Source of the DNA: Bathymodiolus brooksi
Lineage: Eukaryota; Mollusca; Bivalvia; Mytilida; Modiolidae
Assembly (NCBI GenBank): GCA_963680875.1
Contig: OY804580.1
Location: forward strand, 95,943,353-96,007,352
Direction: 5' to 3'
Length of the DNA stretch: 64,000 nucleotides
In this document: positions 16,401-56,045 of the stretch, in pieces
How positions within the stretch are numbered: the first letter of the stretch is position 1
Layout: the number at the start of each line of letters is the position of its first letter
The notes under the pieces: model-generated
Seen by the model: the letters and a program-made list of their open reading frames with translations, nothing else
What the model was told of the DNA's origin: nothing
Databases searched by the model: none
Position numbers and translations under genes: made by a program

Positions 16401-17040
16401 GTGTTACATGTTCTGGTAGGTTCAGTAATCATGTTTTTCAGATCATTCAACCTCATAATATCAAATAATTTGTGAGAATGTTCACTAAGAAAATCTACAT
16501 TTAAATCTCCCGTTATCACAACGTTTGACGAGTAATTCGTGGCGTTTTCCACGGACTGTTGAAACTTGTCCCAGAATGGATATAGTTCGCATTAGGTTGG
16601 CGATATACAACACAAAGGAGCATTTTGTATGCAGGAAAAACAATTTCCAGCCAAATAGCTTCACTATCAAAATTTAAATCTGTTCTGGGTTTGACAATTA
16701 GATGATTACTAAAATATACTATTACACCCCCCCCCCCCCCTGAATTATTTCGATCTTTCCTAAATGGATCTTTGAAGTATCCCTCTATAAAAATGCCATC
16801 ATTTGTTATATTTTGATCAAGATGTGTTTCTGTTAAACATATAATATCTGCTTCATTACAAATGCTTTCTATGTAATCTAATTTATGACGCATACTTCTA
16901 GTTTTTAAATGAAAAATTGAGAGTTCACCTTCCTTTGTAGGGCCTGGGTTTAGCTCAACATCATTACTAAGCAGTATCAGCAATAAAATTATAAATGTTG
17001 AAACTGGATTCTGTAATAGAAGTTCCAGATAAATTTAATG
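13475..17040 (-). mobile_element. Non-LTR retrotransposon with a canonical 2A peptide (LINE 2)
   Basis: On the minus strand the order is 2A peptide (about 16980-16935), AP-endonuclease (16915-16250), reverse transcriptase (about 15700-14600), C-terminal zinc-binding region (about 14000), and a 3' UTR ending near 13478 in an A/T-rich tail. The 3' end reads CCAATCCCATTTGCAAC and is related to the LINE tail at 61905-61990. Damage is light: one 1-base deletion near 16580 and one TGA at 14393-14395. It is among the best preserved elements in the window and lies between the inverted repeats at 12.9 and 18.2 kb. Confidence 0.88.
13787..16983 (-). pseudogene. 2A-endonuclease-reverse transcriptase ORF of LINE 2
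   Basis: The N-terminus has a Leu/Ile-rich run followed by S-N-D-V-E-L-N-P-G-P, an exact match to the 2A consensus. The endonuclease shows L-T-E-T-H-L, V-Y-R-Q-P-N, G-D-L-N-V-D and S-D-H-E. A 1-base deletion between V-Y-R-Q-P-N and G-D-L-N (near 16580) splits it. The RT shows N-Y-R-P-I-S-L-L, the D-I-S-K-A-F-D block, G-V-L-Q-G-S-V and the catalytic F-A-D-D near 14930. An in-frame TGA at 14393 follows S-D-R; a CGA-to-TGA change would explain it. The same frame resumes to 13787 with C-x-C-x7-C-x-H-x5-C, a typical LINE C-terminal zinc-binding pattern. No ATG precedes the 2A in frame, so the true start has been lost or lies upstream. Confidence 0.85.
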
Positions 17041-19817: not shown

Positions 19818-20220
19818 CTAATTGCCACATAACTTCAAGGACCCTTCAGGAACATGGCCGACTAACAAGACTACCTTAAATTTGTTAGCAAAATTGTGAA
19901 ATTTGCGGATTGAATCTTCATCCCTAAAATTATCTATGTACCGATATCTATTTTCTTCCCTACTGAGATCAATGATTTCAATATTTAATGGTAACTTATC
20001 CTTCTGAATTTTAACAATTCGTCCTTTACTGTTACTTCGGAAAGAATTCATAGCTTCCCAGCTTCCACATGTCGAAATATATTTTGACGGTGGTCCATAG
20101 CTCCCTGTAATGACGTGATCAAAAACGAGTGTTGTAGAATAGGGATTTTTGGCATGTAATCCACCCCCAGAAGATTCACGTGGATGTAGAAGCCTGTACA
20201 AAATGTTTGAGTCTTCTTTC
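19818..20220 (-). other. Exon 6 of the HEPN gene (ART-like / DUF7587-like domain)
   Basis: The terminal exon of 403 bases begins after TTCATTCTGTTTTAG and ends with TAG at 19818-19820. It encodes residues 367-500. The pattern L-Y-R-L-L-H-P, then G-L-H-A-K-N-P, then a His, then S-K-Y-I-S-T, then I-I-D-L-S, then V-L-L-V-G-H-V-P resembles DUF7587, whose Arg / Ser-Thr-containing strands recall ADP-ribosyltransferase folds. The third ART position (usually Glu) is not obvious, since K480-F-K-V-V precedes the last strand. Enzymatic activity is therefore uncertain. Confidence 0.75.
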
Positions 20221-23200
20221 CTAAAACAGAATGAAAATGACAATAGTTTGTGAGACTAAACAATATATGGAGGAAGCAGAATATCTTGAACTCAAAGTCA
20301 CCATCAGGGAAATCTCTTTAAACATTGTCAACTACTACTGTCCTAATGATAAGAAGCTCTCACTAGACACCATACAGATCTCAGACAGTAAATATCTCAT
20401 GGTAGGAGATTTTAACAGCCAGTCACAGAGTTTGGGATACAACACAATAAGCCAAAGAGGAGAAACCATAGAAGATTGGCAAGATGAACACCACCTTATT
20501 CTTGTCAATGACCCAACTGACACACCTACCTTTTACTCTCGTCGCTGGCACAAAACAACTACACCAGACCTAGCCTTCTGTACCGATGACATTCACAAGA
20601 ACATCAATAGAAATATATGTGACCAGCTAGGAGGAAGTGATCATCGCCCAGTTATATTATCAATTACAGAGACAACAACACCAGTGCATTCTCAACTTCC
20701 AAGATGGAATTACAAGAAGGCAAACTGGGAAATATTTGAAACATGCACTGATGAGCTTAAAACGGACATAGTTACAAAAGGAAAGAATATCAACAATGTT
20801 GTCAATATATTCTATGCAAGCATTGTAAAAGCTGCAAAAGAAAGTATACCCAGGGGTGTGAGAAAGGACTGACTATAAACCATACTGGTCCAATGAGATG
20901 CAGAAAACACATGACACACTCACCAGAGCAAGAGAGGAGGCTGAGACAAACCCCAGCCAGGAGAACAACATCAAACTCCAGCAAAGCAAAGCAAAGCATC
21001 TCAGAACAAAGCTTGAAAGCCAAAGAAGGGGATGGAGAGAAGAAAATATGTCATCTCTTAATATGAAAAAGGACACAACAATGCTATGGAATTTGACAAA
21101 ACACTAAATGATGAGGGAAGTAAATGCCAAAAGAACACATTAGAAGACGAAGGAAGAACAATCACAGGCAAAGCTGCTGCAAATGCGTTTGCAAAAGGTG
21201 ATGAGACAGAAAGCAATACTAACATTCCACTTGCACGTAAAAAAAAGGAGAAAGAGCATAAGAAATAGAAAGAACAAAAACAGCTGCACATGACATCATG
21301 CAGAATGACATCACAATGCCGGAGCTGAAAAAGTCAATTAAAAAGCTGAAGAAGAAAAAGCCTCCAGGTCCAGATAACATCACAAATAAGATGCTTCAAC
21401 ACCTAGGTAACTCAGCACTCGGAACACTGCTGAATATATTCAATCTTAGCTGGAGGCAAGGTCAAGTACCCCAATGCAGGAAGGAAGTTATTATGATGCC
21501 AATATTAAAGAAAGGAAAGAGCAGGTCAAAAGTCTTGAGTTATCGTTCAATAAGCCTGAATAGCAGTTGTTGTAAGTTGATGGAGCATATAATCAACAAG
21601 AGCATGCAGATGTACATAGAATCAGAGAATATCATTGGACATGAACAATATAAAAGTACAGAAGACCAGACAACACATCTATCACAAGTAATTAACGATG
21701 CCTTTCAAGCCAAAAAAGTAACAGCTGTTTTCATAGATCTACAGAAAGCATTCGATAAAGTATGGAAAGATGGACTCCTGGTAAAACTTCTTTGATATGG
21801 CATTAGTAGAAGAATTTACAACTGGACCAAATCATATCTGTACAATGGAAGAACCAGAGTGCTGGTAGATGGACAGTGTGGACGGAAAGTTCTTTTAAAA
21901 CAAGGGATTCGTCCTCAAGGAGGAGTACTACCACCTACGTATTCTATTCATACTCTATATGGTTTCAGATTAATAAGCATCGGGATGCGAAGACGCTTCC
22001 ATTTTATTCAATAGTACCGAGTGTGCATTTACTTTCGTTGAAATCAATTTTCGTGGAATGGTGGAAAAAGAGTTGCTTGTTGATTTTGTTTTCAACGCTT
22101 TGATTCTTTTTTACAACATCTCTTGTTATATATGCCTCGTGCAGACTGCTGTACTGAATTTCTGGAGGATGACCAAGCTATTTGTAGAGTAGGTGCTTTC
22201 CATTGCCTGGCATTTCATTGCAAGATATTAAACATGCCCTGATATGTTGACAGAACGTAGAGCAATCATGTACATTTAAGAAAATATATGGTCTTGGAAA
22301 GGTTAAACTTAAGATATAGTGGCCAGGTAGGCTCGAAAAAAACACAAATTTAGTAGAAAATGTAAAAGAAATTAATTAGTGGTATATTAAACCTTAGTGT
22401 AATTGTTGGCCATCACTGTTTAAACTTTCTTTAGGTGAGAGGTGATTGTTGGTTTTGTTGATATTGGTGTAATTGATGACCATCACTGTTTAAACTTTCT
22501 TTAGGTGAGAGGTGATTGTTAATTTTGTTGATATTGGTGTAATTGTTGACCATCACTGTTTAAACTTTCTTTAGATGAGAGGTGATTGATCGTGTTGTTG
22601 ATATCAGTGTAATTGTTGTCCATGACTGTTTAAACTTTCTTTAGGTGAGAGGTGATTGTTCGTTTTGTTGATATCAGTGTGATTATTGTCCATGACTGTT
22701 TAAACTTTCTTTTCATAATTAGGTAATCCAAATTTAAGTCTAAATCTGGTATATATGTATGTACATTATTCGCTAATCTTGAACCAAAGTACATGTAGTA
22801 TACATCTATCTATTCATTATCATATTTATTGACTGACTCACGTTTTATCTTCCTGTGTCGCCCTTGCATCTTTATCTTCAGGCAAAGCAGTGCCTGCTGC
22901 TCCTTCTGTGAAAATAACAAAAAAATGAGCTATGAAAACATATTTTAAATAAACAGTGTAATGTGTGTTGTAATAAAATATGTATCCATGCCAACTGTAA
23001 TAAAAACGTAGATATCCAAGTTATTGCGCACGCCACCTTTCTGTAATAACATTCATCAGGTCCTCAAAAGATTGTAGAAAATGATAAGTCTTTTGGAGCA
23101 AGTAAACCAAAAGGTCTAAATAAAATAGACAAAATCAGTAATGGTCACCTGAGGGAGAATAACCTTAGTTTTTATTAATAATTACATTATTTATAAATTG

Positions 23201-26200
23201 TAAATTTCAATTATTCAATGACTAATATAAATACCACACTGTGAGATGAGGAATATCGTATTCTTATATACAGACAATGGGCATTTAATTGCTACATTTT
23301 TAGAGAATTTTCTTGCTTTTGCTACATTTTGTTCTTTGCTACATTTTTGGTTATTGTTCCTTTTGCTACATTTTTGGTTATTTGGTGAAATTTAAAACCA
23401 AACCGTTGGCAAGTCAGATTCAACATCAGATAAACTGACTTTACTTAATTTTGAAATATTAGTGGTCGCAGTCGTAACCCAGTTCCTACTAGGATACTTA
23501 AGACCTTCGTCCATAGAACTTCAGTCCGAAAACTGTGATATTGTGGAAGCACACGTTCAAGCTCGAACACTAGCTACATCTTTTCTCGAGATACGAGAAA
23601 ATGCCGAGGAAGCATTTGATGGACTTTTCAGTAGAGCATGTACAATCGCCAATAAGAACGAAATTACGATCAACAAACCGTGACCATCTGGACGCCGACG
23701 GCATAGGGCAAATGCAGCAGCTGAAACTGTGGAACAGCATTTCAGGATAAACATTTTTAAGCATTTTTAAACATTAAGCCAATGCTTTATGGATTCTACT
23801 TGCTTCCACGGTATTTCCAGAATTTGACGGACGACCTTGTAGGTTCTATTGTTGATGAATATCAAAATGACATCCCATACCCTGATGACTTACCCCAAGA
23901 GGTTCGCAGGTGGACAACTTTGACTCCTAATAAGGAAATCGGATCAAAATGTACCATAGAACTAGCGATTACACATACGCAGTTCTATCCAAATATAAGA
24001 CAAATACAGTGGTGGATTCAAGGGGGATGGGGGAGGGGGGGATGGGGGGGGGATGGGGGGGGGGGCATTGAATAATAAGCCAAGCATATATATTAACATA
24101 CGTTTTTCAGGGCTATTTAACATCACGATATGGCTTTTAATCGAATGATTCCGATTTGTGTGAATTGATGAAAGTAAATATCATACAAATTAATTTCTTT
24201 GTGTTGATTAATCTTCAAAGAGGTAATTAAATCAAATTTTTTATTTATTTGAAGTTTTTATGAATGTATCTCAAAAGACCAATTAATCAGGTATTGTCCT
24301 AAACCGTTATATAAACATGTCTAGTGTCATAATTTCGGTGTGTCAACTTTCTTAAAATTACATATGGTACATATTGTCGTTTTAGCAATTATAATCTATT
24401 AAATTGAGGTTCAGTAAGGAAGCACAAGGGTACATGTATGTTACCTGAACATCAACTTGATAAAAAAAATTATTTCAATAACACATAAAATCATTACAAA
24501 AATAAGGTTTTATTTTAGAATATCAAAATTTAAATAAAAAATAATTTAGATAAATACTGAAATCAATTAGATTATTATATTTATTTAATTTTAATATAAA
24601 TTTAGCATATTTATTTAATTTTAATATAAATTTAGCATATTTGTTTAATTTTAATATAAATTTAGCTTATTTATTTAATTTTAATATAAATTTAGGATAT
24701 TTATTTTATTTTGATATCAAATTAATTTTAATAAGTACAATTATTTTGTATATTTCAATGTAATATTAGGGAAAACAATAATTATCTTTGAGTCACTGAT
24801 AATTAATGGTGAGAATAGTTAAGTAATCAATTCTTTGATGAGGATGATATGTTCAGCTTCCAAGCTAAGTTTAAAGTGAACACATTTTACATTTGATTCA
24901 TACATTGTTATCAATTGTCCAAGCCAACTGAGCAGTCCAAGCTATTTTAAGGTATAAATAAGATAACAGATGAGAACATGTACTTTTCATTCTAATTCAC
25001 CAACCAATATGGCAAATGCACATCTCAATGTTAGCTTCATAGCGAACAGAAAATGTGGGCAGAATATTGCATACAATGGTTACATTTATAGAAAAATACG
25101 CAAAAATGATGACAGAACATTTTGGAGATGCACAGTGACTGGTTGTCCAGGTTCCCTTTCAACTCTAAACAACATACCAGTTGGATTTGGCAGACAGGTA
25201 CACACTCACCCAGCAGACCATACAGGAATCATCACCAAACAAACATTGAATCACAAGTTTTATTTCCATACTTGTGCTTAAAGTAATATTACATCAGTTT
25301 TGGGTGAAGAACATTTTTCCCTGAAAATTCAATTTGGAATACGGTGGTACCTTTACTAAGCTATTCATGCATGTTTCAAGTCGAAATATGTTCACAACAA
25401 CTAGAAATCTGCAAATCCATGTGCATATTTGTCGTCCTAGCCATTGTTGTGGAGACTGATTAACTTTCGGTTGTTTTGTTCCGATGATTGCCGATCATGA
25501 CCTCGTGAAGAAACGTTTTGGTCCGATGATTGCCGATCATGACCATGTGAAGAAAAGATAAACAAGCATGGATGCTGCGATAAGCACGCACACATTCCTG
25601 ACAATGATTATTCAGGAATCTGTCTGTTTCCTACCAAGCTTCAGTACATTTGGCCAAACGGTTTCAGAGCGGAAGAATATAAAAAAATCAGCCAATCAGA
25701 AACAAGAATCGCCTGTGGCGGCCATGTCTGTTAACGGATCGGGATGCAATGAGTAATCTTTATAAATCACCTCCCATACATGCATCCTACCAAGTTTCGG
25801 ATCATTTGATCAAGCGATTTCTGAGGAGAAGATTTTTTAGAAATCGACCAATCAGAAACAAGAATTGCCTGTGGCAGCTATGTTTGTTAATGGATCGGGA
25901 CGAAATGAGTAATCTTTATAGAGGACCTCCCATAAATGCATCCTATCAAGTTTCGGTACATTTGACCGAGTGGTTTCAGAGGAGAAGATTTTTAAAAATA
26001 GGCCAATCACAAACAAGAATTGTCTGCGGTGGCCATGTTTGTGAACGGATCGGAACGGAATGAGCAATAGCAACAGAGGAATTTCCATAGATGCTTCCTA
26101 CCAAGTTTCGGTACATTTGGCCAAACGGTTTCAGAGGAAAAGAATTTTTGAAATAAATCAGGCAATAAGAAACACGAATCGCCTGTGGCAGCCATGTTTG

Positions 26201-29200
26201 TTAATGGATCAGGAAGGAATGAGCATTCGTCATAGAGGACCGCCCATAGATGCTTCCTACCAAGTTTCGGTTCATTTGGCCAAGCGGTGTCAGAGGAGAA
26301 GATTTTTAGAAATCGACCAATCAGAAATAAGAATTGCCTGTGGCGGCCATGTTTGTTACTGGATCGGAACGAAATGATCACTCTTTATAGAGGACCGCCC
26401 ATAGATGCATCCTACCAAGTTTCGGTTCATTTGGCCATGCGGTTTCAAAAGAGAAGAATTTTTAAAATCACCCAATTAGAAACAAGAGTCTCCTGTGGCG
26501 GCTATGTTTGTTAGCGGATCGAGACGAAATGAGAAATCTTTATAGAGGACCTTCCATAGATGGTGCCTACCAAGTTTCAGTTCATTTGGCATATTTATCT
26601 ATAATTCAATTCATAGAGATAGCTGCATTTTGAATACAGATATCTATATTTAAACTAGAGTTATCTCCCTTTTAACAGAAACAAATTATTTCAGAGGAGA
26701 AGAATTTTAGAAATCGACCAATCAGAAACAATAATTGCCTGTGGTAGCCATGTTTGTTAATGGATCGGGACAAAATGAGCATTCGTAACAGAGGACTTTC
26801 CATAGATGCTTCCTACCAAGTGTCGGTTCATTTGGCCAAATGGTTTCAGAGGAGAAGAATCTAAAAATCAGCCAATCAGAAAAAAAATCGCCTGTGGCAG
26901 CAATGTTTGTTAACGGATCGGGACGGAATGAGCAATCTTTATAGAGTACCTTCCATAGATGCTTCCTACCAAGTTTCGGTCTATTTGGCCAAGCTGTGTC
27001 AGAGTAGAAGATTTTTAGAAATCGACCAATCAGAAACAATAATTTAAACTAGAGGCTCCCAGGAGCCTGTATAGCTCACCTGGGTATAACAACATCAGTC
27101 AATAAAACTTGATAACTTCGGTAAAAAAATTAACAAATGTAGCCTTCGTCATTGCAGACCCCTTCTACCAAAAAATTTGGGCAGGGGTTCCCCCTTTAAT
27201 ATAAGTTATCAAAATTGCTGTAAAAAAACATATATGTCAATGATTCTCAAAATTTAGCTTTTCCTACTTCACATTTTGTAATAGAGTTGCTTCCCTTTGA
27301 TTATTTGAGTAACCAAAAGCAGTGAGTCAACAAAAAAATGCATTTCAAGAGGAATAACTCTTCACACAGTTGTCGCACATTTTTAACTGTGGGAAATGTT
27401 TTGTAGATCTTGACATGCTGAACATTTTTGCAGTTTCAACTTTCCCTCTATCTCTAATAGTTTTTGAGATATAAGATGATAGTATTAAAATTGAGAACAT
27501 TTTGATGAAAAAAGGGCAATAACTCCAAAATGGGTAATGGGATTTACTTCAAAATTGCAGGGTAGGTAGATCTCGACATGGTGCACATTTTTGCAATTTA
27601 AACTTAACATCTATCTCTTATAGTTTTTGATATATAACACGAAAGGTATTAAAATTAAAAAAAAAAAATGATCGAAGGGCCGAACCGCCGGACACATTTT
27701 TGGAAGAGAACCATCCAATGATTATTTCATCAAAATTTTGTTCTTATTGAGCAAATGGTTTCAGACAAGAAGATTTTTATGGGAATTTCCCATAGGGTCC
27801 TATGTTAAACTAAGTTCGGCTGTGGCGGCCATCTTGGTCAGTGTTCTGAAATGCCGGACACAATTTTGGAAGAGGACCACCCAAGAATCATTTCAGCAAA
27901 GTTTGGTTGAGATTGGTTCAGTAGTTTCAGAGGAGAAGATTTTTTAAAAATTTCATCCCCCCTTTTTTCTAATTTGCATAATCGGTCAAAATAGGCAAAA
28001 GTTCAAAGTTCATAAAAAATCCGGTAATACATGTTAAAAAGCTCTTCATTATGCTTATACAGTTCAAATTTGGGCACTTTCTGGCTTAAAATAGAGCAGT
28101 TTTGGCCATTTGAAGAAATTTCAATTTTTAGTCATGGTGGCCATCTTGGATACAGGACGGCGCTGACGGACACAATTTGAAAGGGGACCACCCAAGGATC
28201 ATTTCAGCAAAGTTTGGTTGAGATTGGCTCAGTAGTTTCAGAGGAGAAGATTTTTTTTAATTTCATCCCCCCTTTTTTCTAATTTGCATAATCGGTCAAA
28301 ATAGGCAAAAGTTCAAAGTTCATAAAATTTCCCGTAATATATGTTAAAACGCTCATCATTATGCTTATACAGTTCAAATTTGGGCACTTTTTGGCTTAAA
28401 ATAGAGCAGTTTTGACCATTTGAAAAAATTTCTATTTTTAGTAATGGTGGCCATCTTGGATACAGGACGGCACTGACGGACACAATTTTGAAAGGGGACC
28501 ACCCAAGGATCATTTCAGCAAAGTTTGGTTGAGATTGGCTCCGTAGTTTCAGAGGAGAAGATTTTTTTTAAATTTCATCCCCCTTTTTTCTATTTTTAGC
28601 TTGGAGGCCATCTTGGTTGGAAGTCGGGATCACCGGACACAATTTTGGAAGGGGGCCATCCAAGGATCATTCCACAAAAGTTTAGTTGCAATTGGCCCAG
28701 TGGTTTCTGAGGAGAAGATTTTTATGTGAATTTCCCATAGGGTCCTATGTTAAGCTAAGTTCGGCTGTGGGGGCCATCTTGATCGAAGGGCCGAACCGCC
28801 GGACATATTTTTGGAAGAGAACCATCCAATGATTATTTCATCAAAATTTTGTTCTTATTGAGCAAATAGTTTCAGACAAGAAGATTTTTATGGGAATTTC
28901 CCATAGGGTCCTATGTAAAACTAAGTTCGGTTGTGGCGGCCATCTTGGTCGGTGTTCTGAAATGCCGGACACAATTTTGGAAGAGGACCACCCAAGAATC
29001 ATTTCAGCAAAGTTTGGTTGAGATTGGCTCAGTAGTTTCAGAGGAGAAGATTTTTTTTAATTTCATCCCCCCTTTTTTCTAATTTGCATAATCGGTCAAA
29101 ATAGGCAAAGTTCATAAAAAATCCTGTAATATATGTTAAAAAGCTCGTCATTATGCTTATACAGTTCAAATTTGGGCACTTTCTGGCTTAAAATAGAGCA

Positions 29201-32200: not shown

Positions 32201-35200
32201 ATCCTAACGTAATGAGCACTCTTTATAGAGGACCGCCCATAGATGCTTCCTACCAAGTTTCGGTTCATTTAGGCAAGCGGTTTCAGAAGAGAATCTTTTT
32301 TTTTAAATCAGCCAATCAGAAACAAGAGTTGCCTGTTGCGGCCATGTTTGATAACGGATCGGGACGAAATGAACAATCTTTATAGAGAACCTTCCATAGA
32401 TGGTGCCTACCAAGTTTCAGTTCATTCAGTTGAGGGGTTTTAGAGGCATATCTATCTGTAATTCAATTCATAGAGATAGCTGCATTTTGAATACAGATAT
32501 CTATATTTAAACTAGAGTTATCTCCCTTTTAACAGAACAAAATGATTTTTTTTAGATATCAATCAATCAGAAACAAGAATCGCTTGTGGTGGCCATGTTT
32601 GTTAACAGATCGGAATGAAATTAGCAATCTTTTTAGAGGGCCTTCCATAGATGCTTTCTACCAAGTGTCAGTTTATTTGGCTGAGGGGTTTCAGAGGAGA
32701 AGATTAAAATGTGAAAAGTTAACGGACGACAGATGACGGCCGCCAATTGATGGCAAAAGCTTACATTGCCTTTGGCAAGGTGAGCTAAAAAGATGGAGAA
32801 GGTATAAGAGAAGATGGCATGTGCTTTCATGGTTTTATTTTCATTATCTCTCATTTTAAATAAATTTCCAGAAGAAGTGCATTGAGCTTATATTGAAATC
32901 ATCTGTCATTCTAAATATCTTCATAATCATCTGACACCTCATGGAATTTAAAAACAAACTTTTATTCCATTATTGTTATCATCGCACTATAAAACTAAAG
33001 CCAAGTTGATTAACAACGAACTTTGATGACAATATAATCCAACATATGCACTATTTATCATAAAATGTTTTTACTGCTTAACTTCTCTTATCCTATAGTC
33101 TAGTTTAATTATTTTATGTCTGTTTCATCAACATATCTTGACATTTATTATTGCAACTATCAGCTGAACAAGTGCAGAATTTCATTCATGTGTGGAAAAG
33201 AGGCTGTTATCCGAAAAATTCATTTAAACACATAAGTTGCTTTTGACATAATGCTCTTATCTAAGTCTTTGTCTAGAAAATTTCATTTATAGAAATAAAA
33301 TGCTTATTAATATAATTTTCTGAGAAGAAAGTGTTTGCATATTTCCAATAGTCCTACATGTCCTACATTAATATATATATTGGATCAAATTAGTGCAATG
33401 GTTTCAGAGGGGGATTTCCGACTTATTTTTTGTCGAAATCAACCCAATTTGTACATTTTCTGCAATAATCGACAAAATCAGTGACATCCAATTACACAAT
33501 GGATAAAATTAAATGTGTATAAAACTAGCATTTTAGATTACATGTACAATGTATTAATAAAAATCCAGATCACTACGTGGACTACATACATAAAACTTGT
33601 ACCGGACCAAGTATATAAAATCAACACCCAGAAACACTATAAAATCTAATCTGGACCCGGAATCAGTACATAAAATATGGAACAGACCCATAAGATAAAA
33701 TACTGACCCCGGACAGGAGAAAGATCGATGGATAACGTGATAATATCTCCTTTTTCGTATTTTTGCACCTTAAGAGATTCTTGTTTCGAAACGGGTATGA
33801 TTAAAATACCCCCTAAAAATATAAATCCCAACAGTTATTCTTGTGCCAAAAATTTGTGTGCTAAAAATTCAGAAGGATGTGTCAACTAATAATAAATCCA
33901 TTGCATGGAAACCATTTTGTCATCAGACAGATACTAATCACGACGAGGGGCCCGGGTGGCTCAATGAGTTAAATCGTTGGATCTAACAGCTCATACAAGC
34001 CTATCACCAATGCGGCGTGGGTTCGCGCCCAGCTTTGTAAATTACAAAAAAGGTGCACTCGACTCGCAGCGCAAGTGATAAAGTATACCTGTTGCTTGTC
34101 CAGGGTCGGTGGTTCTCTCCGGGTACTCCGGCTTCCTCCACCACTAAAACTAACTGAAATACTGCTAAAAGTGCCGTTAAAACACCAAAAATAAAATCAA
34201 CCAATCACGATGACAGACCCAGAACTGCAAAATATTTGACATCATATAAAAATCCCTGGAATTAAATTTTATAAAATATAAATTTACTGAATGTTTACAC
34301 AGAGTCATACCATCAACGTGTTGACTTCCCCTCTCATCAAGTTCCAATCCTAATGGCTCTTGATCATTTTTCTCTTCATTATCTAAAAAAGACAGATTTA
34401 AAAATGAATATGGCATACAAAATATAGTAAGCATCAAATATTATCAATCTGATGATATAAATCAAATCTCGCACTTGATCTCCTCATAGTCTTGTCAATT
34501 TGACCCCAAAAATGGCTGTGATCGTATGGTGGATGGATTTACAACTACCTATGCAATCAGTGCCTATAACCACTGATTCTGAGTTCGAATCTCGATCAGG
34601 GCGATATAACTGAAATATTGTTGAAAGTGGCATTAAACATCATCAAACAAACAAACAAAAACTCACTTGATCCCCTTATAGTCTTCATTTTAGCCCTAAA
34701 AATTGCCCAACCTGCAACTAATTGCAACACAAGGTTTTTGCATTAAAAATATACATAAACATAAATATAAATTGCAGAAAATGGTATTTTAGGATGAAAT
34801 ATGTGGAGTTTATTTTTGTGAAAATCACCGAAAACTAGAAATGAAGAGGAACTCGGTTATTGATGGGCAAATTGTTATAATCCAAGCTTTAATGGGAGAG
34901 AGTATTTAAGAAATAATTCATGGAAGCCATAGTTTGTAGGCTATTATAATACCGGTATATTTTCTTTAAAATATTCATCCGAGCGATAAATAATTGTTAT
35001 ATGAAGGTGTCATCTTTGTCCCCATAACTGCCTCATTAATAGCAAGGAAATGGCCTCCATTAGAGATACAGTTTGTTGTGTTTTAACACCAAAGTAGCGA
35101 TATGGACTAATTATGCAGTGGGTGGTATCAGATTGTGGTAAATTCCTTGAATCCACTTCCTCTAGGAACTATTCATGTTTCCATGGACGTTCTGCAGTGA

Positions 35201-38200
35201 TGAGAACAATGCCAAAATATTAGATGGAAGAAAAACAATGCTATAGTATTATTTGTTTCATATATGTGTTGCCACTGTGGAAAAAATAATAAAAGAATTA
35301 TGCCCTCATCTGAGGTAGACATTCAGATTTGTCAGCCCATGACAGGTTGTGCCTATCACCACTGATGTTGTGAGTTCAAATCTCGATCAGGGCAAAGTGT
35401 ACAACATTATGTGATAAAGTTTGTCGGTGACTTACGACAGGTCAGTGGTTTTCTCCGGGTTCTCCGGTTTCCTCCATCAATAAAACAGACAGCCACGATA
35501 TACTAGTAATTGAAATATTGTTGAAAGTGGCATTAAACACCATCAAACAAACAACAGATATATATATACCCACAAGGAAATGACGACATTTTGGATAGGG
35601 CCAGAAAATGATCCATTTGACCTGAAGATTGATTTGATTTCATTTTTGATGTTACACACCACGTTCAGCAATAGTTCAGATATATCATGGCGACCAGTTT
35701 TAGTGGTGGAAAAAGCCGGAGTACCCGGATAGAACCACCGATCATGGGCAAGCAACTGGTAAGCTTTATGACTTGCGGCTACGAGTCAAGTGCACCATTT
35801 TTGTAATTTACTAAGCTGGGCGCGACCCCACGCCGTATTAGTGATAGGCTTGTATGAGTTTTTATGCAATCCAACTACCTAACTCAATGGGTCACCCAGA
35901 CCCTTGACCTGAAGACAATTAATTCAAAGCTAAAATGTACATAATGATAAACCAAACCTGAGATAATATAACTGTCACATTCAGTTAAAACTACTGTCAT
36001 AATATGCTGTTCTAAACTACCATTGATGGGGGTAAACACTTTTCGCAGAAATTCTTTAATCGCTTTGTGTAGAGAATCTTTATTACTGAAGCAAATGTTA
36101 TTTATTTCAACTTGAAAAACAAAACTTCCACTTCCAGCTTTCAGCAGTATTATCCTACAAGACCCTTCATTAGGGCTCTTCTTCAGCTGTTCCAACATTT
36201 CTCTGATGGCATGATCATTTATATTTTCACCTCTAATATGTATTGTGTATGGAGAAGAATCAGTGTCTAATCAACAAAACAAAAACAATATGAGTAGAAA
36301 ATAAAAAAAGATACAGTGAAACCTGTCTACACTGAATAAACTAGAATCCTGTATAAATAGAACTTTAAATGAAGTCCCAACGTAGAAAATCTTGGTTACT
36401 TTAACATGTATGATCAAAACACCTGTCTATTACCACCACAAACGTTGGCTCCAAGTAGATTCAGTTTAGACAGGTTTTACTGTATATTATTACAATTATA
36501 AAATGTTTCTTGAAGATGGATTTTAAATTCCTTAAATAAAATTCGTATAACATATGTTCTGCTTAATTAATATATATTTTTGATAAAGTTTGTCAGTGAC
36601 TTGCGACAGGTCGGTGGTCTTGAAAGTGCCGTTAAACACCATCAAACAAACAAAAAATTATTTTTTTCATTTCAAATCACTATTTCTATTTCACCTTTAC
36701 TTACTAAGAACATCCCCAGTCCTTAAAATGAAAATTTGAATTTACTGGTCCGAATCAATTTATCTTTATATAGTTCTGAATAAAAATTGACAAAAACTAC
36801 CGGTCCGAACAAAGTTTTACTGGTGCTGGGCCGGAGGACTGGTGCTCATTGTGAGGACTGCATCCCTTAACCCTTTAATTGACTTTATATATTATTTTGA
36901 ATATGAACTGATATTTTTACTTTTACCCTGTAAAATGTGTGAGATTGAAATGATATCAAATAGACCTTTAGGTGTCAAACCACCAATTCAACCAATCGGA
37001 GCTTAGAACATATACGAAAGTAGTCCTTTTTAAAGAAAATAGTTCCTTTCACTTTGTAGTATTGTGAGAAATACTGAATGGAATGGAAAAATTAAAATTG
37101 ATAATTGAAGAAGAATATATCAGGATTAATTTGAGCCCAAATTTGATGGATTTAGTTGTATTTTAACACCTATATGGAGGATTTGATGCATGAGCTATAA
37201 ATACTAAATTTCTGGGGGATGACGGAGCTATTTTTAAGGTAGGTGTTTCCCATAGCCTGGCATTTCACTGCAAGATTTTAAACATGGCCTCAAATTTTGA
37301 CAGAACGTAGAGGAATCATGTACGTTTCAGAAAATATATGGTCTTCGAAAGGTTAAACTTAAGATAAAATGGCCAGGTAGGCTCGAAAAAACACAAATTT
37401 AGTAGAAAACCTTAAAGAAATTAATTGGTGGTTTTACACCTGTTGCACAGTCCTGATTTGATTCTAAAATTATACTGTTTTTATTAGAGTTATTTCCCTT
37501 ATGACTGGTTAAATGGTACCCTTTCTAAAACGACAAAGAATTTGAGTAAAATTTTTTTATAATAGGGAGTGAGTAAGTGATTATTGTTTAACGCCAACTC
37601 AGCAATTTTTCAGCTATATCATCGCGAGAACAAGTTAATTTTCAATGAGATGATGATGAGGTTCCCTTTGTTCTAGACCAACACGCTGAGTTGGATTTGT
37701 ATAGTGCTAGCTCACTGAAACAACAGGCCGCGGATAGACATGTCGCTACACTCGGACACATTATTCTGATCCCGAGCCAACCAGTCAGTCTTGGCTCCTA
37801 CTCCTTAATGCTGCATGCTTAGCGGAGACGCAACAAATACCAATTTAATAGTCTTTGGTTTGACCCGATGGGGACTCGAACCCAAGATCTACCACACTCG
37901 AGGCGAGCACGCTATCCATTACACCACCGATGCGGTTCTCTTATAAAATGTAGATAATTGAACCTAGGATAATTTTATCAATGTAGCATCTAAAAAATTC
38001 ACAAGTTGTTACATTAAAATTTTATATTCATTAACTTTGTATAAAAGGGGACCTTTTGGTCATCATAAAGGGAAATAACTCCAATTAAAATCTGTAAAAA
38101 CGTATAATTATCTACTTATCAAGTCAGAAGTGTGCAAATGGTCTATTAGATAGTTATGGAATATTTTCAATTTTGAACAGGTTATACGATATAACCTGGT

Positions 38201-39675
38201 TTGAGACAGTTTACGCTTAATAAACCTCGATTTTAATTACAATTATTTCATGGGACTTTTTGAATTTGTTGTTGGCGAATGAATATGTTGGTGACGTCAC
38301 AATACCAACCAAGGTTATCAAATATCAAGTGTAACCAATTTTCTCCAGGCGGATCAGCCAATCACATGGCAGTATTCACATCAAATTAAATCATTTATTA
38401 TTATACATACCAGGTGATTCTTGGTGTCCTAGTTTCATTTCAATGTCAATGCCATAATAGAAATCAAATTGATTTATCCCTGATATATCCTTCAGTTGTT
38501 CTGAATATGAAGAAAATAAAAATTATAATGATAACAAAAATTACAAAACTTACAGGAAAAGTTTTTTTAATAATTTTGTTCAAATTATGCCTAATTTGCA
38601 TATTTGAGTTTAGGTTTCAGTGAATGGATGTTATTCACAGTAATTTTTTATAATGTCCACCAAACTCATTGGGGAGGAAAGGCATACAGCAATAAGGAAT
38701 TGAACGCTGAAATAACAGTCACTGGGTAGGTGTCTACAAATATTAAAACTTCAGGTGGGTATCGGTGCGAATTACAAATTTTAACAAAAAAAAACTGGGT
38801 TACATATTAGTGTTAATCAACTCATTATAATGTACCTCAAGTTTAGTTTTTATTCCAGCCCATTTCAGTAAAAAAAGTATCATTTTTAAGATATTCCTAT
38901 TTTTAGTAATAGATGTTAACGTGGCCATCTTAGATATAGGTGGGGCTGCCAGTTACAATATTTAAAGAATAAAGAGTATCACCCAAGGACAATCTCTGCA
39001 AAGTTGGATTTGAACTTGGCCGATAGGCTTCAAAGGAGATGATAGCAAAGCTCACTTGGCATTTCACAAGGTAAGCATTATTTCTGTAATTTGGGGAATA
39101 TTAAACTTACCCCGATGTACTGGACACTTTTTCAGTGCTTGTTTGCTTTGTTCTTCTGTAATGGGATACTTCTTGACAATTTCTATTTGTCCTACAAATC
39201 TATTGGTACTTTCACCAATCATTTGGTCCACACTACATGCAATTTCAATACTTTCCTTGAAAAATGTGTCTACTTCTTTGTTTGATAAACTAGCTTGTGG
39301 TCGATGAACAAGATCGTTGTGGTTAATTCTCATTCTTTCCATATCATCTCCTTGGTTGAAATATTTGTCTAATGATGGTCTTTTCCCCCAATTCTCTGAA
39401 GGTGCAGGGATTACATTGAAACGTCGCATCAGTTTGTACAAAAGTGGTATGTCCAACATGTTATATCCATTAGTGTTTAGTGTTGGTATTAACATTTTTT
39501 CTGAATTATTAAGAGATTTCATAAATTTATTCTTTGGATCATTTTCTATCATCCTCAAAACTATATTCGACGGGAAGTTGTTTATCATTATCATTGCCAT
39601 CTGTGGATAAATTTCCAATGCCACAAACAAGCAAGAAGCATGTGGTTCAATTTCTGTTGGCACTGCAGTAGCCAT
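19818..39675 (-). CDS. Six-exon gene: HEPN (DZIP3-like) + middle domain + C-terminal ART-like/DUF7587-like domain
   Basis: Spliced model (minus strand): 39675-39111, 38500-38411, 36266-35958, 34382-34311, 22905-22842, 20220-19818. Every intron has AG/GT borders and phases agree (1,1,1,1,2). The total is 1503 nt, giving 500 residues plus TAG. Domains: residues about 60-155, HEPN of the DZIP3-like type ([18 protein letters not shown]); about 219-321, an alpha/beta domain with G-S-F-V-F; 322-367, acidic linker; 368-500, a domain with L-Y-R (R376), S-K-Y-I-S-T (412-417) and V-L-L-V-G-H-V-P (484-491). HEPN domains often act as RNases or scaffolds in immunity and RNA decay. I infer a cytosolic defence-type role; there is no signal peptide or membrane span. 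Further in-phase exons in the 11-kb intron 4 cannot be excluded. Confidence 0.78.
20231..21945 (+). mobile_element. Jockey-like LINE fragment in intron 5 (LINE 3)
   Basis: A 5'-truncated non-LTR element, antisense to the HEPN gene. It carries the second half of an AP-endonuclease ([27 protein letters not shown]) and the first half of an RT (P-P-G-P-D, S-Y-R-S-I-S-L, a D-L-Q-K-A-F-D block near 21740, and R-P-Q-G-G-V-L near 21915). The F-A-D-D block and the 3' end are missing: the similarity stops near 21945, so the 3' part was lost by rearrangement rather than by incomplete reverse transcription. The 5' edge falls within about 25 bases of the splice acceptor of exon 6. Confidence 0.8.
20231..21945 (+). 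pseudogene. Endonuclease-RT coding remnant of LINE 3
   Basis: The frame changes at about 20870 (a 4-base insertion before Y-K-P-Y-W), near 21090 (within L-W-N-L-T-K), and near 21265-21300. A stop at 21793 precedes Y-G-I-S-R-R-I-Y. The coding order is otherwise that of elements usually annotated as mobile element jockey in invertebrates. It is not translatable as one protein. Confidence 0.75.
22149..22395 (+). repeat. Dispersed repeat shared with 37195-37435
   Basis: About 245 bases, roughly 85 percent alike by eye to 37195-37435, including AATTTCTGG, GGATGAC, GCCTGGCATTTCA, TTGACAGAACGTAGAG, ATATATGGTCTT and GGCCAGGTAGGCTCG. There are no coding signs or termini. One copy lies in intron 5 and the other in intron 2 of the HEPN gene. 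Confidence 0.7.
22397..22712 (+). repeat. 70-bp minisatellite, 4.5 copies
   Basis: Units start at 22397, 22467, 22537, 22607 and 22677 with an exact 70-base period and few substitutions. Each contains CATCACTGTTTAAACTTTCT (or CATGACTG...) and GAGAGGTGATTG. It lies in intron 5. Spacers do not differ from repeats, so it is not CRISPR-like. Confidence 0.92.
22842..22905 (-). other. Exon 5 of the HEPN gene (linker)
   Basis: A 64-base exon with acceptor TTTTCACAG and donor AAAAC followed by GTGAGT. It encodes [12 protein letters not shown] and so on, enters in phase 1 and leaves in phase 2, exactly the phase required by the last exon. It lies 11.4 kb from exon 4 because of the repeats in between. 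Confidence 0.68.
23420..24004 (+). pseudogene. hAT-type transposase remnant (P52rIPK/ZMYM1-like)
   Basis: Two overlapping frames give a hAT transposase middle region. The first has [20 protein letters not shown], then S-G-R-R-R-H-R-A-N after a stop at 23681 and V-E-Q-H-F. The second (from about 23782) has [29 protein letters not shown]. These match the usual order in P52rIPK-like transposases just before the dimerisation region, which is absent. Stops and a frameshift make it dead. It lies in intron 4 of the HEPN gene, on the opposite strand. Confidence 0.75.
24008..24067. repeat. G-rich terminus-like repeat
   Basis: CAGTGGTGGATTCAAGGGGG followed by alternating G-runs. The CAGTGG-GGAT-CAAGGGG words resemble the termini of hAT5-type elements and recur at 11355-11370 and, inverted, near 43563-43578. 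It directly follows the hAT coding remnant and may be its end or a separate insertion. Confidence 0.45.
24577..24724 (+). repeat. 30-bp AT-rich tandem repeat, about 5 copies
   Basis: Units of ATATTTATTTAATTTTAATA plus AATTTAGC, period 30, with a few substitutions in the last copy. Intron 4 of the HEPN gene. Confidence 0.85.
24953..24960 (+). promoter_or_regulatory. TATA-box-like sequence upstream of the FLYWCH ORF
   Basis: TATAAATA lies 17 bases before ATG 24970 and 56 bases before ATG 25009. If used, transcription would start near 24983, making 25009 the more likely start codon. Confidence 0.3.
25009..25281 (+). CDS. Single FLYWCH zinc-finger ORF
   Basis: From ATG 25009 (in a longer frame open from 24970) the protein is 90 residues. 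It contains one FLYWCH finger: F-I-A-N-R-K at the start, [15 protein letters not shown] (the two Cys ligands) and V-H-T-H-P-A-D-H (the two His ligands). FLYWCH fingers bind DNA and are common at the N-terminus of MULE transposases and of genes derived from them. No MULE catalytic domain follows, and the C-terminal 20 residues after the finger are unrecognised. It lies in intron 4 of the HEPN gene on the opposite strand. It may be a solitary transposon exon or a small host gene; the intact frame and zinc ligands argue against long neutral decay. Confidence 0.6.
   Translation: MANAHLNVSFIANRKCGQNIAYNGYIYRKIRKNDDRTFWRCTVTGCPGSLSTLNNIPVGFGRQVHTHPADHTGIITKQTLNHKFYFHTCA
25440..25560 (+). repeat. 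Short direct duplication
   Basis: TCCGATGATTGCCGATCATG occurs twice, about 50 bases apart (25480 and 25532), each followed by ACC(T/A)-TGTGAAGAAA-like sequence. It lies just before the satellite block. Confidence 0.7.
25600..27046 (+). repeat. 155-bp satellite, block 1 (about 9 units)
   Basis: Taking the word CCTACCAAG as register, units lie at 25630, 25786, 25942, 26097, 26256, 26411, 26566, 26812 and 26965, a period of 153-159 bases. Consensus words are GGATCGGGACGAAATGAG, TTTATAGAGGACC, CATAGATGCTTCCTACCAAG, TTTGGCCAAGCGGTTTCAGA and CAATCAGAAACAAGAAT. A 91-base extra segment (about 26590-26690) interrupts one unit. Because the unit is close to 52 codons, both strands stay open for two or three units, giving spurious ORFs. 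Confidence 0.92.
27047..31127 (+). repeat. Compound higher-order repeat module (about 4.1 kb)
   Basis: Begins with a small palindrome, AGGCTCCCAGGAGCCT, and CTGTATAGCTCACCTGGG, and ends near AATAGCTCACATGACCC. Inside is a higher-order repeat of about 1.1 kb, marked by GATCGAAGGGCCGAACCGCC at 27670, 28781 and 29884. Each large unit contains roughly 320-base subunits with TTTGCATAATCGGTCAAAAT, GGGCACTTTCTGGCTTAAAA, GCCATCTTGGATACAGGACG and GATTGGCTCAGTAGTTTCAG. Flanking stretches (27400-27660 and 30500-30930) carry another repeat with GGGTAATGGGATTTACTTCA. The GAGGACCACCCA...TTTCAGAGGAGAAGATTTTT text is shared with the 155-bp satellite, so the two are related. Confidence 0.88.
31127..32790 (+). 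repeat. 155-bp satellite, block 2 (about 10 units) and terminus
   Basis: Units at 31188, 31341, 31496, 31640, 31795, 31951, 32094, 32249, 32406 and 32657, period mostly 153-157. The same 90-100 base insertion as in block 1 is present at about 32430-32540, in the same unit context (GATGGTGCCTACCAAGTTTC). The first 300 bases are nearly identical to 26750-27046. It finishes with GACGGCCGCCAATTGATGGC, then CAAGGTGAGCTAAAAA, a typical end of this repeat family. Confidence 0.9.
32800..33940. other. Intron 4 sequence, no feature seen
   Basis: AT-rich. Around 33570-33710 there are loosely repeated ACATAAAA / ATAAAAT words but no clear unit. No exon-like segment with good splice borders on the minus strand was spotted. 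Confidence 0.4.
33949..34203 (+). mobile_element. tRNA-headed SINE, family C
   Basis: The head reads GGGTGGCTCAATGAGTTAAA (A-box region) and GTGGGTTCGCGCCC (B box). The body has GTAAATTACAAAAAAGGTGC and the shared core GGTGGTTCTCTCCGGGTACT. The tail AACTGAAATACTGCTAAAAG ends in GCCGTTAAAACACCAAA. About 255 bases, apparently full length. Intron 4 of the HEPN gene. Confidence 0.82.
34311..34382 (-). other. Exon 4 of the HEPN gene (acidic linker)
   Basis: A 72-base exon with acceptor TTTTTTAG and donor GATG followed by GTATGA. It encodes an acidic 24-residue linker containing E-E-K-N-D-Q-E-P. Phase 1 in and out. Confidence 0.7.
34522..34655 (+). mobile_element. SINE, family B, internally deleted
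   Basis: The head GTATGGTGGATGGATTTACA and the B-box-like GAGTTCGAATCTC join directly to the tail TATAACTGAAATATTGTTGA...GGCATTAAAC and (CAAA)n. The central core is missing. It lies between two imperfect 50-base copies of a CTTGATC...TAGTCTT segment. Confidence 0.75.
35325..35556 (+). mobile_element. SINE, family B
   Basis: Head with GCCTATCACCACTGATGTTG, B-box-like GAGTTCAAATCTC, core CAGGTCAGTGGTTTTCTCCG, tail TAATTGAAATATTGTTGAAA then GGCATTAAACACCATCAAAC. Intron 3 of the HEPN gene. Confidence 0.8.
35690..35907 (-). mobile_element. SINE, family C
   Basis: Reverse orientation: core GTGGTGGAAAAAGCCGGAGT, body GTGCACCATTTTTGTAATTT, B-box GGGCGCGACCCCACG (decayed), head CTAACTCAATGGGTCACCC. 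The tail is truncated. It reaches to about 50 bases from the 3' border of exon 3. Confidence 0.78.
35958..36266 (-). other. Exon 3 of the HEPN gene (middle domain)
   Basis: A 309-base exon with acceptor TTGATTAG and donor CTCAG followed by GTTTGG. It encodes residues 219-321. The pattern is beta (Y-T-I-H-I-R-G), helix (A-I-R-E-M-L-E-Q-L), beta (C-R-I-I-L-L-K), beta (G-S-F-V-F-Q-V-E-I), helix (L-H-K-A-I-K-E-F-L), beta (M-T-V-V-L-T). A ferredoxin-like TRADD-N-type adaptor domain is one possibility; I am not sure of the family. Confidence 0.75.
36580..36655 (+). mobile_element. SINE fragment, core and tail only
   Basis: GATAAAGTTTGTCAGTGACT followed by CGACAGGTCGGTGGT, then a jump to the tail GAAAGTGCCGTTAAACACCA. 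The head is lost. Intron 2 of the HEPN gene. Confidence 0.7.
37195..37435 (+). repeat. Dispersed repeat, second copy
   Basis: Partner of 22149-22395, same order of shared words. It lies in intron 2 of the HEPN gene. Confidence 0.7.
37566..37940 (-). mobile_element. tRNA-headed SINE, family A, near full length
   Basis: On the minus strand it starts CGCATCGGTGGTGTAATGGA (A box) and has TTGGGTTCGAGTCCCC (B box). The body contains GAGCCAAGACTG and GTGTCCGAGTGTAGCGACAT, and the tail reads CGATGATATAGCTGAAAAAT then GGCGTTAAACAATAATC and (ACTC)n. This is the reference copy for family A in this window. Confidence 0.85.
38411..38500 (-). other. Exon 2 of the HEPN gene
   Basis: A 90-base exon with acceptor ATATTCAG and donor GTATGT. 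It encodes 30 residues beginning E-Q-L-K-D-I-S-G, joining HEPN to the middle domain. Phase 1 on both sides. It is too short for ordinary ORF calling, but the splice sites and phase are clean. Confidence 0.75.
38875..39070 (+). repeat. Degraded fragment of the compound repeat
   Basis: TTCCTATTTTTAGTAATAG, GTGGCCATCTTAGATA, ATCACCCAAGGACAATCTC, CAAAGTTGGATTTGAACTTG and AGCTCACTTGGCATTTCACA match, in order, the units of 27047-31127. It sits in intron 1 of the HEPN gene, ending about 40 bases from exon 1. Confidence 0.65.
39111..39675 (-). other. Exon 1 of the HEPN gene (HEPN domain)
   Basis: ATG at 39675-39673, the first Met of the open frame, encodes residues 1-188 and ends at CATCGGG followed by GTAAGT. 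The HEPN region has the conserved N-x-W-G-x-x-P and D-x-E-R-x-R landmarks of DZIP3-like HEPN. At the usual R-N-x3-H site it reads H119-N-D-L-V-H124, so the catalytic-type Arg is replaced by His. The residue after the split G is completed in exon 2. Confidence 0.8.
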
Positions 39676-46251: not shown

Positions 46252-46803
46252 CAGGGAACAAAATTAACGCTGGTCCGCTAGCCCGAGGCTAGTAAAATCA
46301 GCGTCGGGCTAGAAGAACTCTCTTAGAAGCTAGTCCGATGGGCTAGTTAAAATTTCCTATTGTCAATTATTGTTTCCACTTCATTAATTTTAATGACATA
46401 ATTGAAAATCATAATTAGTCATTCATATTACTGTGCAGGGCACGAAATTAACGCTGGTCCGCTAGCCCGAGGCTAGTAAAATCAGCGTCGGGCTAGAAGA
46501 ACTCTCTTAGAAGCTAGTCCGATGGGCTAGTTAAAATTTCCTATTGTCAATTATTGTTTCCACTTCATTAATTTTAATGACATAATTGAAAATCATAATT
46601 AGTCATTCATATTACTGTGCAGGGCACGAAATTAACGCTGGTCCGCTAGCCCGAGGCTAGTAAAATCAGCGTCGGGCTAGAAGAACTCTCTTAGAAGCTA
46701 GTCCGATGGGCTAGTTAAAATTTCCTATTGTCAATTATTGTTTCCACTTCATTAATTTTAATGACATAATTGAAAATCATAATTAGTCATTCATATTACT
46801 GTG
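46252..46803 (+). repeat. 184-bp tandem triplication
   Basis: Three copies with an exact 184-base period; copies 2 and 3 are identical as far as I compared, and copy 1 differs only near its first few bases (CAGGGAACA against CAGGGCACG). The third copy stops before the next CAGGG. Such identity points to a very recent event. Confidence 0.95.
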
Positions 46804-55616: not shown

Positions 55617-56045
55617 TAATTTAATATTTGTACTGCTTTATTATGATAGTATTCATGTTTTTATTTTGTATAAATTATTACATTTGTGTGTATACAAATA
55701 TTACAAGAGACTGTATTGTTTTGCAACAATTGATGTTATGATTTATTGTCAAGAATACGGTATTGTTACCGGTTGTAAACAAATAGTAGAAGTTGTAAGA
55801 TTGAGCAATCAAGCGATAATAAAACAAATTAAAATTTCTCGTTATCGCATGAGACCTTTAAACACAAAATTATACATATTCTCCCACTATATGATTTATT
55901 GTAAGATACATGTTACTGTTGTTTGTTCCATACAAATGAAAAATCGTAAAATCGTGGAATTAAGCGATATATATCTATATATATGTTATTTTTTTCTATC
56001 GCATGAGGCTTTAGATCATAATATTACACTTTATTTATTTATGTC

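What the first reader, a model, noticed from the sequence alone, without database searches (positions are those of the whole stretch)
19818..39675. A six-exon gene joins a DZIP3-like HEPN domain to an ART-like/DUF7587-like domain
Six minus-strand segments with AG/GT borders join with agreeing phases (1,1,1,1,2) to exactly 501 codons. The parts are a HEPN domain, an alpha/beta middle domain with a G-S-F-V-F strand, an acidic linker and a C-terminal domain with L-Y-R / S-K-Y-I-S-T / V-L-L-V-G-H-V-P. HEPN is known from RNA-targeting defence proteins, and the C-terminal pattern recalls ADP-ribosyltransferase folds. A single protein pairing the two suggests an uncharacterised invertebrate immune effector or sensor. 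The splice model is seen in the sequence; the domain names rest on remembered family patterns and the function is inference.
Basis: partly seen in the sequence, partly recalled or inferred. Interest (0 to 1): 0.88.

Follow-up and report, generated by a model that had tools for sequence, protein, structure and literature searches.

The report
Mussel gene fusing HEPN, toxin-like ART
A mussel-like genome carries a spliced gene that joins an RNA-enzyme-like domain to a domain related to a bacterial weapon toxin; both have lost a key active-site residue, yet copies of the gene differ unusually fast in protein sequence, as expected of a molecule in a conflict with microbes.

Summary
The six-exon model is real: it rebuilds exactly, two probably transcript-derived relatives cover exons 1-5, a third joins a similar linker to exon 6 at the same residue, and the exon order recurs at two near-identical loci on the same contig. 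Domains: DZIP3-type HEPN (Pfam, just under cut-off); a domain with the Gly-Ser of TRADD-N (likely, not proven); an acidic linker; and a DUF7587-type domain modelled as an ADP-ribosyltransferase and related to the RNA-modifying Rhs toxin RhsF-CT (PDB 9ZDM). Window and locus B differ at 13.2% of exon but 4.1% of aligned intron positions, dN/dS about 3. Best reading: a disarmed, fast-diversifying sensor, decoy or regulator of the bivalve HEPN/TRADD-N kind with a toxin-related module. Mechanism is inferred.

The parts
39111..39675 (-). Exon 1: start codon and HEPN_DZIP3-type domain
   Evidence: donor GGG|gtaagt; P0001, P0002 and loci A, B, C, D align from the same start
39253..39507 (-). Stretch matching Pfam HEPN_DZIP3 (residues 57-141)
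   Evidence: 26.2 bits, E 7.5e-6, cut-off 27
39304..39330 (-). HEPN motif region R-I-N-H-N-D-L-V-H: the position that is Arg in P0002 and loci A, B, D is His here; the last His is kept
38411..38500 (-). Exon 2: connector
35958..36266 (-). Exon 3: middle alpha/beta domain, probably TRADD-N-like; symmetrical 1-1 exon
36124..36129 (-). Invariant Gly-Ser between the second and third strands
   Evidence: Invariant in 22 of 22 rows; matches the uS motif of TRADD-N in PMC8195603
34311..34382 (-). Exon 4: acidic linker, symmetrical 1-1 exon; missing in locus C with frame kept
22842..22905 (-). Exon 5: linker shared by relatives with different ends
19818..20220 (-). Exon 6: DUF7587/ART-like domain and stop
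20193..20195 (-). Arg of Y-R, aligned with R1403 of RhsF-CT
   Evidence: Arg in 69 of 74 rows, the other 5 being gaps; alignment, residue numbers matched by counting
20073..20075 (-). Ser of I-S-T, aligned with S1445 of RhsF-CT
   Evidence: Ser in 64 of 74 rows
19872..19874 (-). Val where 64 of 74 rows have Glu; aligned with E1497 of RhsF-CT
20225..22100 (+). Retroelement-like open frames inside intron 5, on the other strand; probably older than the split from locus B
   Evidence: element label recalled; intron 5 is 98.2% identical to that of B along its 2621 bases

Best explanation
A real host gene of a mussel-like bivalve, one of a small duplicated family, built from exchangeable cassettes: HEPN (exon 1), probable TRADD-N adaptor (exon 3), linker exons 4-5, and a C-terminal cassette that here is an ART-fold domain related to bacterial Rhs toxins. 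Most likely mechanism (inferred): the protein is catalytically weak or dead at both ends and works by binding. The HEPN module binds RNA or a partner, the TRADD-N-like domain oligomerises or links to death/NF-kB-type signalling or to active paralogues, and the disarmed toxin-like domain serves as a recognition surface (decoy or sensor for microbial ART toxins, their partners or substrates). Its fast amino-acid change reflects a conflict with microbes. Shown: gene structure, recurrence of the fusion, predicted ART fold and toxin kinship, missing key residues, dN above dS and above intron divergence for window versus locus B. Inferred: immune role, binding mode, TRADD-N signalling, decoy function.
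For: Structure. HEPN. ART fold: pLDDT 91.3, pTM 0.85; Foldseek gives 5 of 318 matches at E up to 0.001, all PltA or pertussis-type ARTs (best 2.8e-4, TM 0.58), with Rhs toxins TreX and TreTu at E 0.018-0.07. Toxin kinship: profile A4 (74 rows, one of them the Rhs-like P0095) hits 9ZDM_B at E 4.4e-7; profile A7 (65 rows, without P0093-P0095) at 5.1e-4, and it gives P0095 79.6 bits and a Gilliamella cassette 61.2 bits. Missing residues; in RhsF-CT, E1497A abolished toxicity (PMC13324451 section 8). The window groups with P0003-P0006, all with Val there (94/76, not starred), within a starred set of 10 rows (95/84) whose other 5 keep Glu. Diversification, window versus locus B: 4.1% of aligned intron and 13.2% of exon positions differ, dN/dS 2.9-3.0 (bootstrap 1.9-5.4), codon positions 73/80/35. 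Setting: HEPN, TRADD-N and effector modules shuffle in bivalve immune families (PMC8195603, PMC9646362, passages).
Against: No expression or infection data. TRADD-N rests on motif and topology: PF20694 matched 4 of 22 members, best E 0.03, while an unrelated family matched 18 of 22 at 0.026; the model is poor (pLDDT 58.1) and the second-look rows show a common ferredoxin-like fold without TRADD. dN/dS was by my own NG86 code and is not above 1 in all pairs (exon 1: W-D 1.03, B-D 0.82, A-D 0.55; exon 3: A-D 0.49, A-E 0.53; exon 2: W-D 0.83, B-D 0.47, A-D 0.96); for exon 6 alone it is 1.71, Fisher 0.19. The Val label is not clustered on the tree beyond shuffles (91 of 500 as low). Loss of the catalytic residues could be decay in a dying copy. 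Only window, B and C carry the ART exon among the six loci of the middle domain within the stretches seen, and B and C are nearly identical, so two independent cases. A genome-wide count of the ART exon did not complete.
Confidence: 0.5

Rival explanations
1. An active two-enzyme immune effector: HEPN cuts RNA and the ART modifies protein or RNA, with other residues standing in for the missing ones.
For: Arg and Ser of the ART site are kept; residues 41-77 of the ART domain are identical between window and locus B; locus B keeps the HEPN Arg; the closest solved relative modifies RNA in vitro (PMC13324451).
Against: Val replaces the Glu in the three ART-bearing loci and in the nearest relatives P0003-P0006; window HEPN has lost the Arg and B the His. 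In RhsF-CT, alanine at the Glu abolished toxicity.
Confidence: 0.15
2. A decaying duplicate: relaxed constraint after loss of both active sites, in a repeat-rich region.
For: Both sites are changed; locus C lacks exon 4; the introns hold retroelement-like frames and tandem arrays.
Against: The exons are open with AG/GT borders in window and B; relaxation gives dN/dS near 1, not about 3, and does not make exons diverge three times faster than introns; the Val-bearing class persists in several sequences at 59-72% identity to the window.
Confidence: 0.12
3. Exons 1-5 and exon 6 belong to different genes, or alternative splicing picks different C-terminal exons.
For: P0001 and P0002 carry exons 1-5 with another C-terminus; P0003 carries the ART domain with another N-terminus.
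Against: Exon 6 follows exon 5 on the same strand at window, B and C, and the frames fit; P0003 shows the linker-to-ART junction; the P0001 C-terminus was not found in the window or in the 40 kb fetched at each of five other copies.
Confidence: 0.08
4. Exon divergence above intron divergence comes from gene conversion that homogenised introns and flanks or replaced exons with cassettes from distant paralogues, not from point-mutation selection.
For: Modular exons and dispersed copies; exon dS (0.057 over exons 1, 2, 3, 6) is somewhat above intron 5 and flank divergence (0.017-0.027).
Against: Imported exons would bring synonymous change too; only 4 of 113 fourfold sites differ. The pattern also appears against locus A in exon 1 (ratio 2.38, Fisher 0.006).
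Confidence: 0.15

Closest known systems
Bivalve TRADD-N expansions (Kaur et al. 2021, eLife, PMC8195603; passages read)
   Same: Lineage-specific bivalve families that combine HEPN, a TRADD-N domain and a variable effector or sensor; the paper also reports PARP-14-like ARTs with TRADD-N and, in cnidarians, TRADD-N with Macro, PARP and N-terminal HEPN.
   Different: Here the C-terminal module is a DUF7587-type, Rhs-toxin-related ART, Pfam matched no DED in the exons scanned, and both active sites are incomplete; TRADD-N membership is not proven.
DZIP3/hRUL138-like HEPN proteins of pearl oyster (PMC9646362; passages read)
   Same: Same HEPN class, expanded in bivalves.
   Different: There 194 of 202 keep Rx4-6H; here the in-register Arg is lost, and in locus B the His. 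No NACHT in the model.
RhsF-CT of Chromobacterium violaceum, PDB 9ZDM (PMC13324451; passages and section 8 read)
   Same: Significant profile match; aligned Arg and Ser; it modifies RNA in vitro.
   Different: Bacterial T6SS toxin with its Glu in place and a triad assigned as R-Y-E; the mussel copy has Val and is fused to other domains.
Pfam DUF7587 (PF24494)
   Same: 40 of 74 alignment members match at E up to 0.01.
   Different: The window exon itself does not; Pfam gives the family no function, and the term returned 0 papers in the library held.

Membership tests
HEPN, DZIP3/hRUL138-like (PF18738) | Profile match | tested here: inconclusive
   26.2-26.5 bits, E 7.5e-6 and 6.3e-6, but below the gathering cut-off of 27; relatives P0001 and P0002 22.5 and 24.1 bits. 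I take it as a divergent member
HEPN, DZIP3/hRUL138-like (PF18738) | Rx4-6H RNase motif in register (common, not universal: 194 of 202 in pearl oyster) | tested here: not met
   Window has His at the Arg position; P0002 and loci A, D have R-N-x3-H; locus B lacks the His. A chance R-x4-H earlier in the stretch is out of register. This weakens the RNase claim, not fold membership
TRADD-N | Profile match to TRADD-like_N | tested here: inconclusive
   PF20694 in 4 of 22 members, best E 0.03; noise of equal size present
TRADD-N | Conserved tiny-Ser (uS) motif in the beta2-beta3 turn | tested here: met
   Gly-Ser invariant in 22 of 22 rows, between the second and third strands of a low-confidence model
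TRADD-N | RRM/ACT-like fold | tested here: inconclusive
ART superfamily | ART fold | tested here: met
   Predicted model pLDDT 91.3; of 50 Foldseek rows shown, rows 1-46 and 50 are ARTs or KptA/Tpt1 and DarT enzymes (fold kinship of these names recalled), rows 47-49 are an unrelated xylosidase; only rows 1-5 have E up to 0.001
ART superfamily, R-S-E type | Arg, Ser and catalytic Glu | tested here: not met
   Arg and Ser present; Val at the Glu position. 64 of 74 rows have the Glu
Rhs-type ART toxins (RhsF-CT) | Sequence homology of the toxin domain | tested here: met
   E 4.4e-7 with A4, 5.1e-4 with A7; the two-row profile A3 alone did not find it
Rhs-type ART toxins (RhsF-CT) | Rhs core before the toxin domain | tested here: not met
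   The window protein has HEPN, a middle domain and linkers instead: a relative of the domain, not an Rhs toxin
DUF7587 (PF24494) | Profile match | tested here: inconclusive
   Relatives: 40 of 74 at E up to 0.01, best 1.4e-8; the window exon alone matched no family

The most novel reading that the evidence does not exclude
Bivalves took up a bacterial Rhs-type ART toxin domain, disarmed it and fused it to an equally disarmed HEPN and a TRADD-N-like adaptor, making an integrated decoy or sensor for microbial toxins or their RNA or protein targets that now evolves under strong diversifying selection, as integrated decoys do in plant immune receptors (that comparison is recalled).
Probability: 0.2. 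Interest if true: 0.92.

Novelty: new variant of a known kind. Interest (0 to 1): 0.74.

Why it matters
It would show an animal immune family using a bacterial weapon domain as a non-catalytic part, and it links a domain of unknown function (DUF7587) to an experimentally studied RNA-modifying toxin fold. The exon-intron contrast between duplicates gives a directly testable claim of an arms race, and natural copies with complete and incomplete sites allow a comparison without engineering.

Tried and rejected
Considered and rejected or left open: weak Pfam rows for exon 3 (ATP-synt_ab_C, NleG, DsbG_N and others, E 0.029-0.14) are taken as noise. PDB sequence searches of the whole protein, exon 3, the HEPN exon and the two-row exon 6 profile gave nothing convincing. 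PF24494 in the whole own genome: 0 matches, and the 14 control genomes rang in none, so uninformative. No second HEPN, middle or ART copy in the window beyond chance-level rows. ARAGORN found no tRNA. TRADD is not among the 50 entries shown in the second look. Papers: 'DUF7587' 0 papers; three of 'positive selection', HEPN, bivalve, TRADD: 5 papers, 4 listed (of these I read passages of PMC8195603 only, and not for this point). Other paper searches: used as listings except the four papers of which I read passages (PMC8195603, PMC9646362, PMC3710099, PMC13324451). Direction and date of any transfer between bacteria and bivalves were not tested; the tree has few columns, long bacterial branches and 2 bacterial rows, and the source organism of most rows is not named.

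Rows dropped: of 104 hits, 73 entered A4 and 64 entered A7 (left out of A4: short or redundant rows by my choice; further left out of A7: P0059, P0080-P0082, P0089, P0092-P0095). Of 22 hits, 21 entered A5 (P0108 is the window's own). dN/dS totals cover exons 1, 2, 3 and 6; one search covers all six. Introns 2, 3 and 4 and the 3' flank were only partly alignable (951 of 2144, 1332 of 1575, 8142 of 11405, 431 of 3000 bases). One search printed rows at E under 0.5 only. A first dN/dS script stopped on a division by zero at exon 4 and was redone.

Full report
Observation. The six minus-strand exons were rebuilt from the sequence: 1503 nt, 500 residues plus stop, phases 1,1,1,1,2, AG/GT borders. 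The weakest point, exon 5 in an 11.4 kb intron with 352 possible right-phase open exons of 20-300 nt, is the best of 352 by splice score (weights recalled) and is 82% identical to the same stretch in two relatives. P0001 and P0002 align from the window's start codon.

Independent support. A protein search returned 3 proteins at E up to 1 among 4368 candidates. P0001 and P0002 run through exons 1-5 with no gap at the junctions (indels lie inside the exons) and then into another C-terminal region without a Pfam match above cut-off. Their source contigs (2861 and 3571 bases) are too short for the introns, so they are probably transcripts (inference). P0003 has another N-terminal region but joins an exon-5-like linker to an exon-6 homologue at the identical residue. 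So the exon-5 linker joins exchangeable N- and C-terminal cassettes.

Recurrence. In the window's own 2.0 Gb genome the middle domain has 6 matches (the window's own, three more on contig C6, two on C14, a lower bound). I fetched 40 kb at each of the five others. Two loci, B (C6 near 94.08 Mb) and C (C6 near 96.31 Mb), carry HEPN, exon 2, middle, exon 5 and ART exons in the same order and strand; B also has exon 4, while C lacks about 2 kb including exon 4 with the frame kept. B and C are 99.4-99.8% identical in the two long matching pieces, so they count as one independent case. In B the frame runs past the window's stop position; its own stop was not located. Loci A and D have HEPN, exon 2, middle and exon 4 (A also exon 5) but no ART exon in the 40 kb; locus E showed only the middle domain.

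HEPN. Pfam HEPN_DZIP3 matches at 26.2-26.5 bits, just below the cut-off of 27. In pearl oyster 194 of 202 such domains keep Rx4-6H, with Asn typically after the Arg (PMC9646362, passages). P0002 and loci A and D have R-N-x3-H; the window has His for that Arg, P0001 Leu, and locus B has the Arg but Asn for the His. So neither of the two independent ART-bearing genes keeps the pair.

C-terminal domain. An alignment search gave 104 relatives at E up to 1, four with an organism name, all Mytilus; 40 of the 74 rows aligned match DUF7587, the window exon itself not. The model is confident (pLDDT 91.3); 5 of 318 PDB matches have E up to 0.001 and all five are PltA or pertussis-type ARTs, and rows 1-46 of the 50 shown are ART-type folds. 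The profile A4 matches 9ZDM_B at E 4.4e-7, and A7, built without P0093-P0095, at 5.1e-4; the two-row profile A3 had not found it. 9ZDM is RhsF-CT of Chromobacterium violaceum, which modifies RNA in vitro (PMC13324451, passages). A7 also scores P0095 (79.6 bits), whose N-terminal part looks like an Rhs core (recalled; Pfam gave only DUF7587), and a Gilliamella cassette (61.2 bits) that sits with two other open frames of similar start, as in polymorphic-toxin cassette arrays (label recalled). R1403 and S1445 align with the mussel Arg and Ser, and E1497 with the position that is Glu in 64 of 74 rows and Val in the window. In RhsF-CT the triad was assigned as R-Y-E: R, Y and E to Ala abolished toxicity and S to Ala reduced it. 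The window groups with P0003-P0006, all with Val there (94/76, not starred), inside a starred set of 10 whose other 5 keep Glu; the Val label needs three changes on the tree and is not clustered beyond shuffles (91 of 500 as low).

Selection. Window and B differ at 564 of 13646 aligned intron positions (4.1%) but 196 of 1488 exon positions (13.2%), Fisher 5.5e-39. Over all six exons, 495 codons: protein identity 70%, dN/dS 3.0 (bootstrap 1.9-5.4, 0 of 2000 at or below 1), differences at codon positions 73/80/35, and 4 of 113 fourfold sites. Other pairs are mixed. Exon 1: W-B 2.73 (Fisher 0.0036), W-A 2.38 (0.0062), B-A 1.82, W-D 1.03, B-D 0.82, A-D 0.55. Exon 2: W-B 1.82, W-A 4.81, B-A 1.12, W-D 0.83, B-D 0.47, A-D 0.96. 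Exon 3: W-B 11.0 (one synonymous change, Fisher 0.0007), W-A 2.27, W-D 1.94, W-E 2.00, B-A 1.85, B-D 1.20, B-E 1.66, A-D 0.49, A-E 0.53, D-E 1.26. Exon 6: W-B 1.71 (Fisher 0.19). High ratios thus involve the window and B, the ART-bearing genes, more than A, D and E. In the ART domain residues 41-77 are identical and changes lie on either side. Relaxed constraint does not explain nonsynonymous change well above introns; gene conversion remains a partial rival.

Conclusion. The gene is a new variant of the modular HEPN/TRADD-N proteins known from bivalves (PMC8195603, PMC9646362), with a toxin-related ART-fold end. Missing key residues at both ends together with diversifying change favour a binding role (sensor, decoy or regulator) over an active effector. 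No functional data exist here, and the immune role is inference from family context.

Noticed in passing
2183-4819 (+), 13790-17034 (-), 20225-22100 (+), 54720-59751 (+): Long open frames that read like LINE-type endonuclease and reverse transcriptase (label recalled, not searched); one fragment lies in intron 5 and ends next to the exon 6 acceptor.
   Followed up: partly
25629-32444: Large tandem arrays of roughly 155- and 310-base units fill much of intron 4.
   Followed up: no
46252-46803: Three nearly identical 184-base tandem copies (99% matches).
   Followed up: no
62895-63710 (+): Open frame that may be a tyrosine-recombinase-like mobile-element protein (recalled impression only).
   Followed up: no
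35887-35957 (-): The stretch just after the exon 3 donor is recognisable in other copies, apparently in two different reading frames, which fits an intron in recent duplicates rather than coding sequence.
   Followed up: partly
L001:394-792, 1465-1875, 2939-3190: Gilliamella contig with three open frames sharing a similar start, separated by small genes: looks like a polymorphic-toxin cassette array (label recalled); the middle one holds the DUF7587-like domain.
   Followed up: partly
P0001 residues 382-517, P0003 residues 1-215: Two further unidentified modules attached to the same linker in relatives; no Pfam match above cut-off.
   Followed up: partly
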